DNA of 9,741 nt, taken from NCBI GenBank assembly GCA_021158805.1, contig JAGGTZ010000113.1, positions 1 through 9,741 on the forward strand. Reading direction: 5' to 3'. This document shows positions 2,812 to 9,741 of the stretch, one piece after another (positions within the stretch are counted from its first letter, which is position 1; each line of letters starts with the position of its first letter). Both the position numbers and the translations under genes were made by a program. Source of the DNA: Thermoproteota archaeon (lineage in GTDB: Archaea > Korarchaeota > Korarchaeia > Korarchaeales > Korarchaeaceae). The notes under the pieces were generated by a model, which saw only the letters and a list, made by a program, of their open reading frames with translations, did not search any database and had not been told where the DNA came from.

Positions 2812-3921
2812 TTGTTATCATATGATAAGTCCCCACCTTTGCCACTTCAGGACTACTATTTCGTAAAATACGAAGATTTAATGGATTTTATCGAATCGAT
2901 CTTCATAAAACTAGGGGTACCTAAAGAAGATGCTCACTGGGTAGCCGATAATCTTGTTGCAGCAGATCTCAGGGGCATTGAATCTCACGGGGTAGCTAGG
3001 CTGAGGAGATACGTTGATGGCATAATGAACGGAGCTGTTAAAGCTAGGCCAAACATAAGGATAGTTAGGGAAAGCCCTGTTCATGCCTTGATAGACGGAG
3101 ATTCTGGTCTAGGTCAGGTTGTTGGGAGAAAGGCCATGGAGCTAGCGGTAAAAAAGGCTAAAGATAACTTCTTGGGCATGGTGTTAGTTAGAATGAGCAA
3201 CCATTTTGGAATCTCGGGCTACTACGCGATGATCGCTCTAGAACATGACATGATAGGCCTATCCATGACCAATGCTAGACCACTAGTTGCTCATACTGGT
3301 GCTCTAGGGAAGTGGATAGGTACAAACCCCATCTCCCTAGCAGCTCCGACGAAGAACCCACCGCCGTTTGTTCTGGACATGGCAACAAGCATAGTTCCAA
3401 TAGGAAAAATGGAGACCTACTCTAGAAAAGGTAAGAAGGCCCCAATGGGATGGGGCATCGACTCCCAAGGCAAGTACACTGATGACCCAGCAGTTATTAG
3501 AAAAGAAGGGGCCCTACTACCCCTAGGTGGCCTAAAGGAACTGTTTGGTGGGCATAAAGGGTATGGGCTCGCGGTTTTAGTTGAGATACTCTCCGCGGTG
3601 CTAAGCGGATCGGCCATACTAGACGATGTGGGTCAGACCCAGGGGCCCGGCCCAAGTAATGTAGGCCACTTCTTCATGGCTATAAACATTGAGGGGTTCA
3701 TGCCCATAGAAGAATTTAAGGAGAGAATGGACCTTATGATACAGAAGCTGAAATCAGCGCCTTTACATCCAGAGTCCGAGAGGATATGGATACATGGAGA
3801 GAAATCCTGGCTAACAACCCAAAAGAGGTTAAGAGAGGGAATTCCTATCTATAAGAAGACTATGCAAATGATGAGGGAAGTGGCAGATCAGGTTGGGGTA
3901 GGATTCCCCTGGCAGCTATGA
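2812..3921 (+). CDS. Malate/L-lactate dehydrogenase, Ldh2 family
   Basis: NAD(P)-dependent 2-hydroxyacid dehydrogenase of the Ldh2/MDG2 family, a fold unrelated to classical LDH/MDH. Members reduce oxaloacetate, pyruvate, sulfopyruvate, cyclic imino acids or ureidoglycolate partners, so the substrate is not certain; malate dehydrogenase is the usual activity in thermophilic archaea. Visible motifs are ADLRGIESHG (51-60, with Arg54 and catalytic His59), MSNHFGISGYYA (128-139, His131), WIGTNPISLAAP (168-179), FVLDMATS (186-193, Asp189), MGWGID (212-217), PLGG (237-240) and GGHKGYGLA (246-254). The 369 residues match the family's usual 340-370. TTG 2812 is chosen because it follows GGTGGG; ATG 2881 is the alternative. 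It converges with the LeuA-like gene across a 60-base gap. All family residues are intact, so it should be active in the cytoplasm. Confidence 0.93.
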   Translation: MLSYDKSPPLPLQDYYFVKYEDLMDFIESIFIKLGVPKEDAHWVADNLVAADLRGIESHGVARLRRYVDGIMNGAVKARPNIRIVRESPVHALIDGDSGLGQVVGRKAMELAVKKAKDNFLGMVLVRMSNHFGISGYYAMIALEHDMIGLSMTNARPLVAHTGALGKWIGTNPISLAAPTKNPPPFVLDMATSIVPIGKMETYSRKGKKAPMGWGIDSQGKYTDDPAVIRKEGALLPLGGLKELFGGHKGYGLAVLVEILSAVLSGSAILDDVGQTQGPGPSNVGHFFMAINIEGFMPIEEFKERMDLMIQKLKSAPLHPESERIWIHGEKSWLTTQKRLREGIPIYKKTMQMMREVADQVGVGFPWQL

Positions 3922-3981: not shown

Positions 3982-5520
3982 TTAGGCCTTTATCCTATTT
4001 ACTGAGTCCTCAAGTGCTTTAAGAGAGGCCTCTAATATGTCAGGGCTCGTTCCACTCGCCTCAACCTCTCCTTCTGGTCCTAAGATCCTGAGTAACACCT
4101 CTCCAATCGCATCAGTCCCCGAGGATATCGCTCTAAGCCTAAATCTCCTGAGCTTGAAGTCGGGAATGCCTTTCAAGGATCTTATAGTATTTGCCAGTGC
4201 ATCTACTGGACCTACTCCATATGAGGCAGCTCTAAATTCCTTGTCACCTACTTTGGCCTTTATTTGAGCTGTTGGCGTTATCCCAGATCCTGTTACAACG
4301 AGCCATTCCTTTATCTCGAACCACCTGCCCTCCTTCCTACCTAAGATTTCATTAACGATCGACTGAAATACACCCTCGGTTATCCTGACTCCTTTATCTG
4401 CTAGTTCCTTCACCTTAGCCAGTATTTCCTCGACTTGCTCGTCTGTGACCTTATATCCCATCTCCCTTAGCACTTCAATAACGGCAGTTCTCCCAGAGAG
4501 TTTCCCTACAATGAACCTTCTCCTCCTTCCTACCTCCTCTGGGGGAATGGATTCGTAGGTGGCTGGGTCTATGGAGAGGGCATGGACATGAACTCCAGCC
4601 TCATATGTATAAACCAGCGGGCCAACGACAGGCATTATCTCATATACAGGGACGCCACTAAGCCTCTCAACGAGTTCACTCACCTCAGCTAAAAGCTGGG
4701 TTTGTACGTTAGTTTCTACGTTCAAGATTTCCTTAAGGGCGACGACAACCTGCTCCAGTGGGGCTATTCCTGCCTTCGGTCCAAGTCCATTGACAGATAC
4801 TTGCACCTGATCGGCCCCCGCCATAACAGCGGCCAGCGAGTTAGCTGTCGCCATGCCGAGGTCGTTGTGGAAAGCCACGCTTATGGGTTTACTTAGCCTA
4901 GCCTTGGCCTCCTCTACCATTCTCTTGGCGCCATCGGGGGTAAGTATGCCCACGGAGTCGGTGAGATTTATTCTCGAAGCTCCTGCCTCTTCAGCCTCTT
5001 TACATAATTTCCAGAGGAATTCCGGATCAGCACGACTTGCATCCTCCGCTGAGAATTGTACCTCTACCCCTCCCGATTTAGCAAGAGCTATTGACTCGAT
5101 TACCTGTTCTAAAGCCTCCTCCTCAGTTAATCGAAGCCTCTTCTCCAGGTGAAGCTTGCTAGCCGGCATGAATATGTGTATGCTATCTACCTCGCTCTCT
5201 AAAGCCAGTTCTATATCCGTTCTCCTGGCTCTAGCCAACGCACAGATATCAGCAGAGAAGCCAGCTCTAGAGATCCTCTTCACCGCTCTAACGACCTCAG
5301 CTACGGCTTTTCTCTCTCCTTCAGATGCAGCAGGGAATCCAGCCTCTATGACATCTACCCCTAATGCATCAAGAGCCATTGCAATTTCTACTTTTTCATC
5401 AGCGGAAAATGAGACGCCTGGTACAAGTTCTCCTTGAGTAAGGGTTGTATCGAATATCCTCACCCTCGAAGGCATTCCAGAGGATGGGATGTTGAATGAA
5501 CTCATAGGACTTAGGGTCAC
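3982..5520 (-). CDS. LeuA-like (2-isopropylmalate synthase family) protein with altered active site
   Basis: DRE-TIM metallolyase-family protein with LeuA architecture: TIM barrel (about 18-285), linker subdomains (about 290-395) and a C-terminal leucine-sensing-type regulatory domain (about 400-510, including GVGPVDA at 435-441 and ISSGTDAIG at 465-473). LeuA normally condenses acetyl-CoA with 2-oxoisovalerate for leucine synthesis. Here the signature DTTLRDGEQ reads DTTLTQGEL, so catalytic Arg becomes Thr28 and metal-binding Asp becomes Gln29. The metal pair HCHND reads AFHND, leaving only His218. GERAGN reads GPKAGI (247-252), HESGIH reads YEAGVH (306-311) and GKHSGR reads GKLSGR (339-344). 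FSAEDASR (156-163), NLTDSVG and HNDLGMA remain. At 512 residues it is full length with no frameshift, so it is not a plain pseudogene. The start is GTG 5520; ATG 5505 or 5475 are possible, and 5475 best fits the family. No leuB/C/D genes lie nearby. It may be a paralogue with new chemistry or a regulatory role. Confidence 0.88.
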   Translation of the reverse strand: MTLSPMSSFNIPSSGMPSRVRIFDTTLTQGELVPGVSFSADEKVEIAMALDALGVDVIEAGFPAASEGERKAVAEVVRAVKRISRAGFSADICALARARRTDIELALESEVDSIHIFMPASKLHLEKRLRLTEEEALEQVIESIALAKSGGVEVQFSAEDASRADPEFLWKLCKEAEEAGASRINLTDSVGILTPDGAKRMVEEAKARLSKPISVAFHNDLGMATANSLAAVMAGADQVQVSVNGLGPKAGIAPLEQVVVALKEILNVETNVQTQLLAEVSELVERLSGVPVYEIMPVVGPLVYTYEAGVHVHALSIDPATYESIPPEEVGRRRRFIVGKLSGRTAVIEVLREMGYKVTDEQVEEILAKVKELADKGVRITEGVFQSIVNEILGRKEGRWFEIKEWLVVTGSGITPTAQIKAKVGDKEFRAASYGVGPVDALANTIRSLKGIPDFKLRRFRLRAISSGTDAIGEVLLRILGPEGEVEASGTSPDILEASLKALEDSVNRIKA

Positions 5521-5551: not shown

Positions 5552-5560
5552 TTAAATTTT
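5552..5560 (-). promoter_or_regulatory. Possible TATA box of the LeuA-like gene
   Basis: On the - strand AAAATTTAA overlaps the herA stop codon. It is centred about 36 bases before GTG 5520 and 51 before ATG 5505, which would put the transcript start near 5530. With that start, GTG 5520 would sit about ten bases into the mRNA and has no clear Shine-Dalgarno sequence. Confidence 0.3.
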
Positions 5561-8093
5561 ATCCCATTTTCCTCCAAGCTTCGTCGGGAGGGCTCACCGC
5601 CTTTGAAGGGAGGCTCACCACTTCAACCTCCACCTCAATGGGGAAGGGTATAGGACTTGCCATACCCCATATGAGGGCTTCGTGATCCGAGAGACTTGGA
5701 AGGTAACTGCTCAGGTCATCTACCTCGGTATATCTCATTATAGCCTCTTGGTCGTTTCCATTCCTTAGTCTAAAGGCGACGACGGTATTGGTCTGGCTTA
5801 TTACGCTTTTAGACACGTAAGCAGGTCTCTGAGTCACAACTACAAATCCTAGGTTATATCCCCCCGCCTGACTTATGGCTTCTATTATCGACTGAGCTGT
5901 CCCAGCTTCATAGGGATCTCCCACAATATTGTATCCCTTCTCGGGCACTAGGTACTGAGCTTCCTCTATAACTACTATGAGAGCAAAATCTCCATGATTT
6001 CTCCTATCAACAGCGTGTCTTACAAGCCTTCTTACAATCTCTCTTACGGCGAGGAACTGCTCCTCGTAATCTGTATCCATGGAAAAATCAACTATCACTA
6101 GGGGGTGCTTTCTGACCTCTTCCACAATGTCGAGACCTAACCCCCTTCTCCTCGTCGAGGAGAACTCCCTCTTCAATCTAGATTCGATGTCTGCAACTAG
6201 AGAAGATTTAATCCTCATCTCCCTCGCTACCTTCCTCAAAGACTTGATCAGAACGTCAAGCTCTAGCTCATCCCCTTGAGACATCGTTTCCTCTGCAGCA
6301 CTAAGGAGGAGTCTGTAGGATAGAGTTCCCTGCCTATACCCTAGCTTCTTGGCTATATCTCTTGGCCTAGAAAGTCCATGTTTAGGTAGGAAGGCTGAAT
6401 AGCTATAGACCACAGCCCCCTTACTAGATAATCCTAGATATTCGCCTCTTCTATCTAAAATTAGGAATCTAGGCCTAGGGATCCTAGTCTGTGCCTTAGA
6501 CACCATACTGGCTATGAAGCTGCTGTTATGTACGAAAGCTCCATTGGCTAGGAAGTTATGGGCGGAGTCGACCTCTAAGTCGTAGACGAACCTATCCGTA
6601 GTAACAACTTTCTTCACCTCTACGACTTCCTCTAGATTGACATAGGCTTTCTGTAATACTTTTCTGGGCTTTTTATGAATCAGCTGTCCATAAACTCTAC
6701 TACTTCCGTCGATTACTAGCTCAGAAAGGGCCATCTGTAGTGTTAACTCGTCGACAATGAGGCCATTCTGGCAATGGCCAACTACTGTGACTCCTATTAG
6801 GGAGAGAAGTGTGGAGAGCTCATAAATATACTCTCCAGTTATAATTATCCTCTCCATTGATCTTACATCATGTTTCGGAGCCATCTTCCTGATAAGGAAC
6901 TCCCTTAGGGCATTAATTCTCGGATAAAGAGCAGTTCCTGTGAAGTGAACGTAAGTCTCTGGGAGATTAAGGATGGAGGCGATTCCCCCGGAGATCCCGT
7001 CCATCAGCAGGTCTGATTTAGCGATGACCACACCCTCAAGGATCTCATACTCTACTCCAGCCTCTTCACAAGCCCTTGCCGGATCTGCTACATTCTTATC
7101 GAAGATCCAGACCTCCTTTCCCCACCTACCTGGGATTCCCTGAGCTAGTGCTATTCCAATTAATCTATCCATATAGATTAGGTCTTCATTGACCTTGGGA
7201 GGTTTAAGACCAACCCCTCTGGGCACTATGAGGTACTTCTTTCTCATAGCAGCCAACTTCTTCGGCGTAACCGCTACTACATTCTCTCCATCCGGACTGA
7301 CTATGAGGCTATGGTCTTCTGTTACTCTCAGTATCCTACCAGTTGACGTCCTAATCTCATAGATGTCCTTGTCATTTACATGTCTGTAGGCATATCTAAT
7401 CCTCCCCCATGTTGGGGTCATCCCCTTGCCTAAGGAGATCGTATAAAGCTCTTGGCTGGATAGATCAACGACCCCCTCCCTCATACTGGCTGGAAGGAAT
7501 GAATCCACGAACTTCTTTATTGGCCCTAGGAAGTACTTACCGTTGGTAGCATCATATATGACCACTACACTATCTCCGGTTACGCTTTTACCACTCCTAG
7601 TCATTCCGGTGACGAACATATGTCCCTTTGCTACGGAGGCTAGGTCTAGGTGGAAGGGTATTGAGGTGCCCTTGATCCTACCGATCTTGATAGGGAGGCC
7701 AGAATGGCCCTTCACGGACAAGAATGAGGAGAGCTCTAAGGTAGAAGGTCTAGAAACCGGTGCCAAGGTTGGAGGAGGCGCCTCTAATCCCCTGATTTTT
7801 CCAGTTAAGGGATCCCTGTATCCCAAAACCTCACATTCTGCCACTATATATTCTAGCTCGCTCGAGTAGTCGGAAATGAGCCCTGAGCTCGTGGCTATTA
7901 ACGCGGCTCTTCCTAGATCTACCTCCTCATTTATGGAGTATATCTCCTTCGCCCTCAAGAATACGAGAGCATCCTTCCATGGATGAGAAACAGTATAAAA
8001 TTCGCCTAGAGATATTTTTGAACCTTTTAAGGCTACAAATGAGACCCTCCTCGGGGTCGAGCGGGATATGACATAACCAACCACACCGCTCAA
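5559..8093 (-). CDS. herA: DNA end-processing ATPase HerA, interrupted by an in-frame intein
   Basis: Hexameric FtsK/HerA-class DNA translocase that works with the nuclease NurA, and in most archaea with Mre11-Rad50, to resect double-strand break ends. The precursor has 844 residues; removing the intein (170-523) leaves 490, the normal HerA length of about 500. Order: N-terminal HAS-barrel (about 1-115), Walker A split as GMTRSGK (163-169) and Ser524, Walker B ALIVVIEEAQ (704-713, Glu710/Glu711), TQRP (754-757) with the probable sensor Gln and arginine finger, then a C-terminal part ending near FPIEVEVEVV (817-826). The start is TTG 8093, which overlaps the nurA stop by four bases (TTGA) and has GGAGAGGT three bases before it. 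GTG 8084 is a weaker option. Without splicing the P-loop is broken, so the precursor should be inactive as an ATPase. Confidence 0.95.
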   Translation of the reverse strand: MSGVVGYVISRSTPRRVSFVALKGSKISLGEFYTVSHPWKDALVFLRAKEIYSINEEVDLGRAALIATSSGLISDYSSELEYIVAECEVLGYRDPLTGKIRGLEAPPPTLAPVSRPSTLELSSFLSVKGHSGLPIKIGRIKGTSIPFHLDLASVAKGHMFVTGMTRSGKSVTGDSVVVIYDATNGKYFLGPIKKFVDSFLPASMREGVVDLSSQELYTISLGKGMTPTWGRIRYAYRHVNDKDIYEIRTSTGRILRVTEDHSLIVSPDGENVVAVTPKKLAAMRKKYLIVPRGVGLKPPKVNEDLIYMDRLIGIALAQGIPGRWGKEVWIFDKNVADPARACEEAGVEYEILEGVVIAKSDLLMDGISGGIASILNLPETYVHFTGTALYPRINALREFLIRKMAPKHDVRSMERIIITGEYIYELSTLLSLIGVTVVGHCQNGLIVDELTLQMALSELVIDGSSRVYGQLIHKKPRKVLQKAYVNLEEVVEVKKVVTTDRFVYDLEVDSAHNFLANGAFVHNSSFIASMVSKAQTRIPRPRFLILDRRGEYLGLSSKGAVVYSYSAFLPKHGLSRPRDIAKKLGYRQGTLSYRLLLSAAEETMSQGDELELDVLIKSLRKVAREMRIKSSLVADIESRLKREFSSTRRRGLGLDIVEEVRKHPLVIVDFSMDTDYEEQFLAVREIVRRLVRHAVDRRNHGDFALIVVIEEAQYLVPEKGYNIVGDPYEAGTAQSIIEAISQAGGYNLGFVVVTQRPAYVSKSVISQTNTVVAFRLRNGNDQEAIMRYTEVDDLSSYLPSLSDHEALIWGMASPIPFPIEVEVEVVSLPSKAVSPPDEAWRKMG
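6525..7586 (-). mobile_element. Intein inside the HerA P-loop (354 residues)
   Basis: Protein-splicing element covering precursor residues 170-523. The first residue is Ser170 in SVTGDSVVV (block A). Block B is RVTEDHSL (256-263) with the TxxH pair Thr258/His261. Block F is FVYDLEV (502-508) followed by AHNFLANG, and block G ends in His522-Asn523, with Ser524 as the +1 nucleophile. These are the residues of a standard class 1 splicing path using Ser at both junctions. Joining Lys169 to Ser524 rebuilds GMTRSGKSS, an exact Walker A motif, which fixes the borders. The central part (about 305-450) has the size of a LAGLIDADG homing endonuclease, but LIGIALAQG (311-319) is only a degenerate copy of the first motif, with Gln where an acidic residue is expected. 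Splicing is expected to work; DNA cutting probably does not. Confidence 0.93.
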
Positions 8094-9163
8094 TCGACCT
8101 CTCCCCTCTGCAGGGAGAATATGGCCGTCCTATCCACACCTTCAATTCCGATTTTAGAGGAGAGATCTCCGAGCATTAGCCTATACATCAAGGAGGCCTG
8201 CTTATCAGTTAGCTTAGAGAGCCTATCGACAGCTATTACAGGAATGGGAAGTCCTGTCGACGGTTCTGAGAGGCTGTAAATAACGCTAGCAAGCTTATCG
8301 GAACCTTCTAGAGCATATTCTGGGATATCGAGTCTGAAGGGTTTTGCTCCCCTCCTGATATAGAGAGCCCATGGTCTGTACATACTGGGCCTATCTAACC
8401 ATGGTACCATATCCTCCCATCTTGAGACGATGGGAACAGGTCCAACAGCTTCACCTTCTCCCAACAAGGTCGTAGAGAGTAGGGAGTCTGGGTACCTATC
8501 TAAGCCGAGCCATGCTGCTAGGTAGGTGCTTCTGACCCTCTTGACTATACCTACTACAGGGACGCCAGAAACCCTTGCGAGTCTCAGTAAACTACCCAAT
8601 GTCTGTAAAGCCCTATCATAAACCTCAAGGTAAGCTGGCGAATGATTTCTACCTCCTGGTCCATAATAGTTCCTTGGAAGGTAGAGTGGGCCGTCTAGAA
8701 GAAGAATATCCGAATGTTCTACTAGCCTAAGGGCCACCCTGTACATCAAGTAGTACCCAAGCAATGAGGAGAACTTCCTCCCCTCCTCATCATCAAAGTA
8801 GGCTTTAGGCGGCTTTACAGTAGCAATTATTGGTCGTCCTAACTTATTTACCCCTAAAAAAGTGGCCCCGACTGCTATGCTTACCGGCTGGTATCCTAGC
8901 ATGAGATCCTTGCCGTTAGATCCAGCGTCAACAGCCGATATCCTTAAGTCCTGTGTAGGGACTTTCCTAAGTCTCGTTATCGGTAAGATTTTCCTTAGAT
9001 CAGGGGACAGAGATCCGACCCTATTTATCAGTTTACTTAGGTTTTCAGCCATCTCAGCTGCTAATTCCTTTAACAACTCGTAGTACTTATCGTAAGTCTT
9101 TATTACAGGCTCAAGCTCTCTGCCAGCTAAGCTTACCTCCCCGGCCGGGTCCCTCCTTTTCAT
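8090..9163 (-). CDS. nurA: 5'-3' nuclease NurA, partner of HerA
   Basis: Mn-dependent exo/endonuclease that forms a dimer docked on the HerA hexamer and trims the 5' strand at DNA breaks. The NurA fold shows the first catalytic aspartate in ISAVDAGSNGK (75-85, Asp79), an acidic patch DDEEGRKF (124-131), LLLDGPLYL (154-162, Asp157), VVGIVKRVRSTYL (203-215, Lys208), and the last motif PVIAVDRLSKLT (308-319, Asp313). The length of 357 residues is typical. A charged helical stretch (about 20-50) may help dimer or HerA contact. ATG 9163 follows GGAGAGGT with a three-base gap and a good TATA box further up. It is the first gene of a two-gene operon with herA, overlapping it by four bases. mre11 and rad50, often beside this pair, are not in the window on this side. 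Confidence 0.92.
   Translation of the reverse strand: MKRRDPAGEVSLAGRELEPVIKTYDKYYELLKELAAEMAENLSKLINRVGSLSPDLRKILPITRLRKVPTQDLRISAVDAGSNGKDLMLGYQPVSIAVGATFLGVNKLGRPIIATVKPPKAYFDDEEGRKFSSLLGYYLMYRVALRLVEHSDILLLDGPLYLPRNYYGPGGRNHSPAYLEVYDRALQTLGSLLRLARVSGVPVVGIVKRVRSTYLAAWLGLDRYPDSLLSTTLLGEGEAVGPVPIVSRWEDMVPWLDRPSMYRPWALYIRRGAKPFRLDIPEYALEGSDKLASVIYSLSEPSTGLPIPVIAVDRLSKLTDKQASLMYRLMLGDLSSKIGIEGVDRTAIFSLQRGEVD
8097..8104 (-). promoter_or_regulatory. Shine-Dalgarno site of herA, fixes the TTG start
   Basis: On the - strand GGAGAGGT lies inside the end of nurA, three bases before TTG 8093. It supports the TTG start and coupled translation with nurA. Confidence 0.6.
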
Positions 9164-9360: not shown

Positions 9361-9741
9361 ATGGTTGTCGAGGGGGCCACACCAAAAAGGGAGGACCTGA
9401 TGCAGGATCTATCCAATGAGGATGAACTGCTAAGTGACCTACTTTCTGACCTGAGAGTAAAAGAGATTGGAAAGATAGATTTATCGGACTCTAACTATTT
9501 CTTAGTGGTCCCCTCCTCGGCTGATTTCTCCCTCTTAGATAAGGTACTCTCTGATGATATAGGGAGGATAAGGGCTGTAATTATCCTAGACGATGGTCTC
9601 TATGGTGATGGATCTGAGGAGTTCACCTATAAGCTATCGATAGTAACCTCCGGTCGTGTAAAAGAGATTTCACTTGGCAGACCAGACCAATTGACGATAA
9701 TAAGGGTGCTCTCTAAGGCCAAAAGCCTCATGGGAGATATG
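9361..9741 (+). CDS. Unrecognised protein, N-terminal part only
   Basis: An open frame of 127 codons runs off the right edge without a stop. I do not recognise the family. The protein begins MVVEGATPKRED, has an acidic helical stretch (about 14-32, with DLLSDL), then alternating strand-like and charged segments such as YFLVVPSS (46-53), IRAVIILDDGLYGDG (70-84) and LTIIRVLSKAKSL, which suggest a soluble alpha/beta domain. No membrane segment or signal peptide is seen. The coding character is good: no stops, codon use like its neighbours, and a promoter-like region ahead. ATG 9361 would be almost leaderless given the TATA box at 9324. ATG 9400, preceded by GGGAGG at five bases, is a serious alternative that drops 13 residues. 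It is divergent from nurA and may be unrelated to it. Confidence 0.7.
   Translation, partial: MVVEGATPKREDLMQDLSNEDELLSDLLSDLRVKEIGKIDLSDSNYFLVVPSSADFSLLDKVLSDDIGRIRAVIILDDGLYGDGSEEFTYKLSIVTSGRVKEISLGRPDQLTIIRVLSKAKSLMGDM

What the first reader, a model, noticed from the sequence alone, without database searches (positions are those of the whole stretch)
3982..5520. Full-length LeuA-family protein that has lost the arginine and two of three metal ligands
DRE-TIM metallolyases are defined by a conserved Asp-Arg-Glu set. Here the Arg and Asp of the first strand are Thr28-Gln29 (codons ACT CAA, not one base from the usual ones), and the first His of the metal HxH pair is Ala216. GERAGN, HESGIH and GKHSGR are also changed. 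The second His and the FSAED Glu remain. The open frame, barrel and regulatory domain are all intact, so selection seems to maintain a protein that should not do the normal metal-dependent Claisen condensation. It could be a new enzyme, a pseudoenzyme partner that binds a true LeuA, or a sensor of leucine or another ligand.
Basis: partly seen in the sequence, partly recalled or inferred. Interest (0 to 1): 0.75.

Follow-up and report, generated by a model that had tools for sequence, protein, structure and literature searches.

The report
LeuA copy stripped of its metal site
Korarchaeum archaea keep, usually beside a normal copy of the leucine-making enzyme LeuA, a second copy whose metal-holding active site has been taken apart while its amino-acid-sensing type of domain stays intact, so it likely works as a sensor or regulator rather than as an enzyme.

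Summary
The frame lies on the minus strand (5520 to 3982) and belongs to one well-supported clade of LeuA paralogues, present in 15 of the 16 held genomes of one archaeal genus (Candidatus Korarchaeum, inferred). None of 30 aligned rows keeps the Arg-Asp of RDGE, the first metal His or the Asn of GERAGN; the second His, present in the window, is replaced in 24 of 30. It is not a decaying gene: dN/dS is 0.04-0.12, close to the true LeuA, which 14 of the 16 genomes also carry. Constraint is lost unevenly: compared with that LeuA, divergence is about 3.9-fold higher on the pocket face, 1.7-fold in the rest of the barrel, 1.1-fold in the regulatory domain. The CoA-side Glu-His-Tyr set is kept in 30 of 30 rows. 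One 99%-complete species (G002) lacks the leu operon, ilvC and ilvD yet keeps this gene, so it is likely needed neither for leucine synthesis nor as LeuA's partner. Best reading (inferred): a pseudo-synthase that senses leucine or a similar ligand. Main rival: a metal-free acyl-CoA enzyme. Some records name it 2-isopropylmalate synthase, in my view wrongly.

The parts
3982..5520 (-). LeuA-like frame without metal site (512 aa from GTG; likely start ATG at 5505, 507 aa)
   Evidence: start by comparison with orthologues
4669..5466 (-). HMGL-like TIM barrel, residues 19-284
5434..5439 (-). Thr28-Gln29 in place of Arg-Asp of RDGE (MAMS Arg89-Asp90)
4867..4875 (-). Ala216-Phe217-His218 in place of the metal HxH (MAMS His288/His290)
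4765..4767 (-). Ile252 in place of the Asn of GERAGN
4774..4779 (-). Pro248-Lys249, fixed in the clade (30 of 30); Glu-Arg in 114 of 114 canonical rows
5044..5046 (-). Glu159 (MAMS Glu227), kept
   Evidence: 30 of 30 rows
4588..4590 (-). His311 (MAMS His388, proposed general base), kept
   Evidence: 30 of 30 rows; role from PMC11532901 passages
4555..4557 (-). Tyr322 (MAMS Tyr399), kept
   Evidence: 30 of 30 rows
4390..4629 (-). HCS_D2 linker subdomain, residues 298-377
   Evidence: PF22617 E 5.2e-23
3991..4383 (-). LeuA_dimer allosteric domain, residues 380-510; constraint close to that of the true LeuA
5559..8093 (-). HerA-type helicase with intein, upstream neighbour 38 bp from the LeuA-like frame
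8090..9163 (-). NurA nuclease, upstream of herA on the same strand
   Evidence: PF09376, synteny
2812..3921 (+). Ldh_2 oxidoreductase, convergent neighbour
   Evidence: PF02615; near the gene in 12 of 16 loci of the genus

Best explanation
This is a paralogue of LeuA, held under strong purifying selection across one archaeal genus, that has lost the Arg, Asp, first His and Asn of the metal and keto-acid site but keeps a LeuA_dimer domain about as constrained as that of the true LeuA, and it likely works as a ligand-sensing pseudo-synthase rather than as a 2-isopropylmalate synthase. Shown: the residue losses, the selection, the canonical LeuA beside it, the uneven loss of constraint, and its presence in a genome where the leu operon, ilvC and ilvD were not found. 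Inferred mechanism: the protein dimerises through its LeuA_dimer domain as LeuA does. Leucine or a related amino acid binds in the regulatory pockets at the dimer interface. The resulting shift is passed to a barrel that can no longer hold a metal-chelated keto acid, but whose CoA-side residues (Glu159, His311, Tyr322) are intact and may still bind an acyl-CoA. The output would be a change in binding to a partner that I cannot name.
Against: Glu159, His311 and Tyr322 are invariant (30 of 30), although among 90 other archaeal rows the set is Met-His-Phe in 43 and Met-His-Tyr in 9; a pure sensor would not obviously need them. Several pocket replacements are themselves fixed in 30 of 30 (V33, F217, P248, K249, Y306), which suggests a pocket that still binds something. 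Conserved positions were not lost significantly less often in the regulatory domain (2 of 32) than in the catalytic part (21 of 131; Fisher p 0.25). No ligand, partner or output is shown. The leucine contacts could not be checked residue by residue. The G002 argument rests on one genome.
Confidence: 0.48

Rival explanations
1. A metal-free acyl-CoA enzyme: the protein has dropped the metal-chelated 2-oxo acid but still uses the Glu159-Tyr322-His311 set to handle an acyl-CoA, with a different acceptor or with water.
For: The three residues equivalent to MAMS Glu227, His388 (proposed base) and Tyr399 are kept in 30 of 30 rows. New pocket residues V33, F217, P248, K249 and Y306 are fixed in 30 of 30 rows. 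Lost conserved positions cluster on the pocket side (13 of 49 against 8 of 82, Fisher p 0.015 on a set that I chose by hand), as in a remodelled site.
Against: The pocket face is strongly relaxed relative to the true LeuA (3.9-fold), and so is the segment 302-325 that carries His311 and Tyr322 (0.248 against 0.062, 4.0-fold). The equivalent of Gln93, which contacts acetyl-CoA, is L14, M13 or Q3. The adjacent genes (nurA, herA) suggest no pathway.
Confidence: 0.25
2. A dead regulatory partner of the canonical LeuA, as HisZ is for HisG: the two would form mixed dimers in which this subunit supplies the regulatory domain and trans-acting residues.
For: Fourteen of the 15 genomes with the gene also carry canonical LeuA. 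The regulatory domain, whose leucine pockets lie at the dimer interface in LeuA (PMC11057210 passages), is about as constrained as LeuA's own. [quoted passage not shown]
Against: G002 keeps the gene; no canonical LeuA or leu operon was found in it. The two genes are unlinked: one follows herA, the other lies beside leuC.
Confidence: 0.17
3. An ordinary 2-isopropylmalate or citramalate synthase that binds its metal through other residues.
For: The whole-length profile NF002085 (2-isopropylmalate synthase) is passed above its cut-off, 541.8 against 517 bits.
Against: Arg, Asp, first His and Asn are lost in 30 of 30 rows and the second His in 24 of 30. By eye I saw no new conserved metal ligand set among the clade's invariant positions. 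A canonical LeuA exists beside it in 14 genomes, and the gene persists in G002 where the leu operon, ilvC and ilvD were not found.
Confidence: 0.03
4. A recent pseudogene that has not yet decayed, or an assembly error.
For: Catalytic residues are lost.
Against: Full-length open frames occur in 14 of 16 genomes of the genus, plus one contig-edge fragment. dN/dS is 0.04-0.12. The clade is old: stem 0.75 changes per site and deep internal splits.
Confidence: 0.01

Closest known systems
LeuA / 2-isopropylmalate synthase (canonical Korarchaeum copies and M. tuberculosis LeuA)
   Same: Same three domains in the same order, 46-51% identity to Korarchaeum LeuA, same predicted fold; the base His, Tyr and Glu are kept.
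   Different: Arg-Asp of RDGE, one or both His of HxH and the Asn of GERAGN are lost; unlinked to leuC; kept in a genome where the leu operon was not found.
Methylthioalkylmalate synthase (6E1J), a LeuA descendant with a new role (passages)
   Same: Derived from LeuA by duplication and diverged in the pocket.
   Different: MAMS kept metal and Arg and lost the regulatory domain; this protein did the opposite.
HisZ, regulatory protein of HisG(S) (PMC9734150, abstract and section list seen; that HisZ is a dead histidyl-tRNA-synthetase relative is recalled)
   Same: A dead relative of an enzyme that serves as a ligand-responsive regulator.
   Different: HisZ acts on a catalytic partner; here no partner is shown and LeuA was not found in G002.
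Regulatory domain of Leptospira citramalate synthase with isoleucine (3F6G/3F6H)
   Different: That domain controls an active synthase (my own knowledge).

Membership tests
LeuA (2-isopropylmalate synthase) | HMGL-like barrel + HCS_D2 + LeuA_dimer domains in order | tested here: met
   PF00682, PF22617, PF08502 above cut-off
LeuA (2-isopropylmalate synthase) | Arg-Asp of RDGE (substrate Arg and first metal ligand) | tested here: not met
   T/S and Q/L in 30 of 30 rows
LeuA (2-isopropylmalate synthase) | HxH metal pair | tested here: not met
   first His absent in 30 of 30, second absent in 24 of 30, present in the window
LeuA (2-isopropylmalate synthase) | base His with Tyr and Glu (MAMS His388, Tyr399, Glu227) | tested here: met
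   30 of 30 rows; mapping by the 6e1j alignment and PMC11532901 passages
LeuA (2-isopropylmalate synthase) | place beside other leucine genes | tested here: not met
   directly downstream of herA in 14 of 15 complete loci, elsewhere in G002; the canonical copy lies beside leuC in 13 of 14 genomes, the contig of the 14th (G004) ending inside leuA
[quoted passage not shown]
   needs protein
DRE-TIM metallolyases | TIM barrel fold | tested here: met
DRE-TIM metallolyases | Asp and Arg of the DRE set and divalent metal site | tested here: not met
   Asp and Arg lost in 30 of 30 rows; the Glu of EAG kept in 30 of 30
Pseudoenzyme regulatory subunit of a paralogous enzyme (HisZ-like) | always found with the active paralogue | tested here: not met
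   14 of 15 genomes; G002 has the gene, LeuA not found
Pseudoenzyme regulatory subunit of a paralogous enzyme (HisZ-like) | physical complex with the active enzyme | not testable with these tools
   needs protein or paired-chain models

The most novel reading that the evidence does not exclude
A DRE-TIM barrel that gave up its metal: a metal-free acyl-CoA enzyme in which the retained Glu159-Tyr322-His311 set activates a thioester without a chelated 2-oxo acid, switched on or off by an amino acid bound to the LeuA_dimer domain. It would be, as far as I know, the first member of the superfamily to work without a metal, and a protein whose function is tied neither to leucine synthesis nor to LeuA.
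Probability: 0.22. Interest if true: 0.72.

Novelty: new variant of a known kind. Interest (0 to 1): 0.5.

Why it matters
It looks like a clean natural split of LeuA's two jobs: the catalytic site was taken apart and the allosteric domain was kept, over the history of a genus. That makes a direct test possible of whether an amino-acid-sensing domain can be kept for its own sake in archaea, where few amino-acid sensors are known (my own knowledge). It also bears on annotation. The window's protein passes the NCBIfam 2-isopropylmalate synthase profile and a clade member is so named in public records (P0016), so metabolic reconstructions could credit a leucine pathway enzyme to genomes such as G002, where the leu operon was not found.

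Tried and rejected
Sequencing error or pseudogene: rejected by orthologues, open frames and dN/dS. Obligate leucine-pathway enzyme: argued against by G002. A functional link to HerA-NurA: herA lies directly upstream on the same strand in 14 of the 15 complete loci (G002 is the exception; G004's contig starts inside the gene), with gaps of at most 47 bp in 13 of these 14 and 558 bp in G011; nurA is seen before herA in 11 of the 14, the contigs of the other three starting or ending inside herA. The flanking genes are largely kept too, so I read this as general synteny, not as evidence of a shared job. Other lineages with the same loss: none of the other 124 among the 142 proteins listed by two searches (motifs; four of these rows start downstream of part of the first motif), but only the best 120 per search were listed, so loss elsewhere in the family is not excluded. 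In the 29 genomes held for the phylum, the 13 outside the genus gave no member of the clade; matches in four of them (G022, G026, G027, G028) are of distant or canonical type by score. Context in G002 (solute-binding protein, transporter parts, AFOR, and a TIM-barrel protein below the Pfam cut-off) gave no lead. In the G002-like trio the D2 part diverges faster than the barrel (0.281 against 0.120 between G002 and P0009); unexplained. Literature: 'isopropylmalate synthase' with 'pseudoenzyme', 'Korarchae' with 'isopropylmalate synthase', 'DRE-TIM' with 'metal-independent' and five citramalate synthase terms found 0 papers each; some searches gave listings in which I saw no such protein, of which I opened four papers for passages and one for its abstract. 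Two papers on M. tuberculosis LeuA and one on the MAMS structure are not held, so the CoA and leucine contacts were not checked residue by residue.

Full report
What is there. The frame runs on the minus strand from 5520 to 3982, 512 codons. Several near orthologues start at the equivalent of the ATG of residue 6, window 5505. It has the three LeuA domains: HMGL-like barrel, HCS_D2 and LeuA_dimer. It passes the NCBIfam subfamily profile NF002085, 2-isopropylmalate synthase, 541.8 bits against a cut-off of 517, but no other of the 25 profiles shown. Residue mapping was made with the printed alignment to the plant enzyme 6e1j and the roles given in PMC11532901 (passages only): Arg89 is Thr28, Asp90 is Gln29, Gln93 is Leu32, Glu227 is Glu159, Thr257 is Ser189, His288 is Ala216, His290 is His218, His388 is His311 and Tyr399 is Tyr322.

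The loss is clade-wide. Eighteen protein clusters, P0001-P0018, 58-99% identical to the window's protein, share it. The next hits, P0019 on, are canonical, and the score gap is large (861 against 581 bits with the profile). In an alignment of 30 clade rows, 24 canonical Korarchaeum rows and 90 other archaeal rows, the five sites Arg, Asp, His, His, Asn read R-D-H-H-N in 21 of 24 Korarchaeum rows (three rows start downstream of the first two sites) and in 89 of 90 others. None of the 30 clade rows has R, D, the first H or N. Identical rows and two fragments (G004 of the clade, canonical G005) were dropped before these counts. The 30 rows overlap in origin (loci and database clusters of the same or near species), so they are not independent, and the function of the 90 archaeal rows rests on annotation. 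So the clade conserves no metal site of the usual kind. The Glu of EAG (the third letter of DRE, by my knowledge) is kept in 30 of 30.

Who has it. The window's genome G000 (1.46 Mb, 79% complete) also holds a canonical leuA in two contig-edge pieces, one followed by leuC, and a distant LeuA-like gene in a second cluster. Of 16 held genomes in the genus, 15 have the paralogue: 14 with full-length copies (G014 with two), and a contig-edge fragment in G004; none in G013, 70% complete. Canonical LeuA is in 14 of 16 (not in G002 or G013). None of the other 13 genomes held for the phylum has the clade. The genus is Candidatus Korarchaeum by inference: P0017, so named, has a longest contig of 760474 bases, the length of G011:C2. 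I recall, and did not look up, that the length of G009's single contig is that of Ca. K. cryptofilum. The canonical copy lies beside leuC in 13 of 14 genomes (G004's contig ends inside leuA), with a LeuB-like gene on the same contig close by in those 13; the identities of leuC, leuD and leuB were checked by profile in G009 only, where LeuB is below the cut-off of its best profile.

Selection and age. The clade is one side of a branch with 100/100 support, and the canonical Korarchaeum set 100/99 (58 rows). The split of the other archaea from these two is weak (71/38), so a sister relation to Korarchaeum LeuA is likely but not firm. In its favour, the regulatory domains of the two are more alike (0.479) than either is to other archaea (0.355 and 0.370). 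dN/dS is 0.039 to 0.120 in nine pairs of the clade and 0.042 to 0.082 in seven canonical pairs; three clade pairs and two canonical pairs gave no dS and so no ratio.

Where constraint was lost. In 12 genomes with both genes, mean pairwise divergence is 0.282 against 0.156 in the barrel from residue 54 (ratio 1.81), 0.274 against 0.178 in D2 (1.54) and 0.262 against 0.244 in the regulatory domain (1.07). The barrel-to-regulatory ratio is 1.69, bootstrap 1.24-2.31. G014's bin holds two copies of the clade; I paired one of them with its canonical copy by guess. On all rows, the 62 pocket-face columns (a rough set from the model's strands) diverge 0.223 against 0.057, the strand core 0.236 against 0.095, the rest of the barrel 0.357 against 0.211, the D2 segment 302-325 0.248 against 0.062, the rest of D2 0.367 against 0.257, and the regulatory domain 0.296 against 0.264. 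Of 163 positions at least 90% conserved in canonical rows, 105 are kept, 35 mixed and 23 lost. The lost ones lie in the catalytic part in 21 of 131 cases and in the regulatory part in 2 of 32, which is not a significant difference (p 0.25). Within the catalytic part they favour the pocket side, 13 of 49 against 8 of 82 (p 0.015, set chosen by hand). Against a plain dead pocket, Glu159, His311 and Tyr322 are E-H-Y in 30 of 30, whereas the 90 other archaeal rows show M-H-F in 43, E-H-Y in 38 and M-H-Y in 9.

The G002 test. G002 (99% complete, 40 contigs) keeps a full-length copy, 69% identical, and not next to herA. Its best matches to leu-operon LeuC (48%) and LeuB (42%) belong to a second cluster of which other genus members carry a version besides their leu operon. 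It has no IlvD match and only a 20-bit IlvC match, while IlvD is found in 14 of the 16 genus genomes and IlvC above cut-off in 10 and as a strong fragment in two more. In G009 the leu operon, ilvC and ilvD lie at separate places, so one assembly gap is unlikely to remove all of them. This argues that the protein's job is independent of leucine synthesis and of canonical LeuA. Caveats: it is one genome, and the second cluster (NifV-like, IPMI-like and LEU3-like by profile) has unknown substrates.

Mechanism and verdict. The pattern (metal and keto-acid residues gone, CoA-side Glu-His-Tyr kept, regulatory domain about fully constrained, persistence where the pathway was not found) fits best a ligand-sensing pseudo-synthase (0.48). 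A metal-free acyl-CoA enzyme is the main rival (0.25). A LeuA partner like HisZ comes next (0.17). Nothing here shows a ligand, a partner or an output. It is a new variant of a known kind: a dead or repurposed paralogue in a superfamily for which the searches found no description of a member without a metal; that library lacks most subscription journals.

Noticed in passing
window 5559-8093 (minus): HerA-type helicase carries an intein inside its Walker A loop (GMTRSGK|S...VHN|S). The same site is filled in all 14 relatives' HerA genes examined: ten loci of the genus, G002, and three genomes outside the genus.
   Followed up: partly
window 8090-9163 and 5559-8093 (minus): nurA and herA overlap by 4 bp. 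The pair is found together in other genera too, where no LeuA-like gene follows (six loci, L072-L077).
   Followed up: partly
window 2812-3921 (+): Ldh_2 oxidoreductase, tail to tail with the LeuA-like gene and near it in 12 of 16 loci of the genus; nearest named profile is L-sulfolactate dehydrogenase but far below its cut-off.
   Followed up: no
L004; L078:2976-6995: Second cluster of LeuA-like, LeuC-like, small-subunit-sized and LeuB-like genes in the genus; in G002 its LeuA-like gene is nearest to the NifV/homocitrate synthase profile, below cut-off; substrates unknown.
   Followed up: partly
L002/L003 (G000:C147 and C101): The own genome's canonical leuA lies on two contig ends that overlap and are 99.5% identical at the protein level, probably strain variation in the bin.
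   Followed up: no
L034 and L035 (G014): G014 holds two different copies of the LeuA-like gene with two nurA-herA runs, which fits its 7% contamination: probably two species in one bin.
   Followed up: no
window 9361-9741 (+); L034:11962-12843: Gene divergent from nurA, kept in ten loci of the genus (281-293 aa), with only a weak winged-helix match; the gene at that place in G002 (257 aa) did not match it.
   Followed up: no
L052, L066, L067: In three canonical leuA frames my ORF caller (first ATG, GTG or TTG) began only just before RDGE, although the match extends further upstream; the true start is unclear.
   Followed up: no
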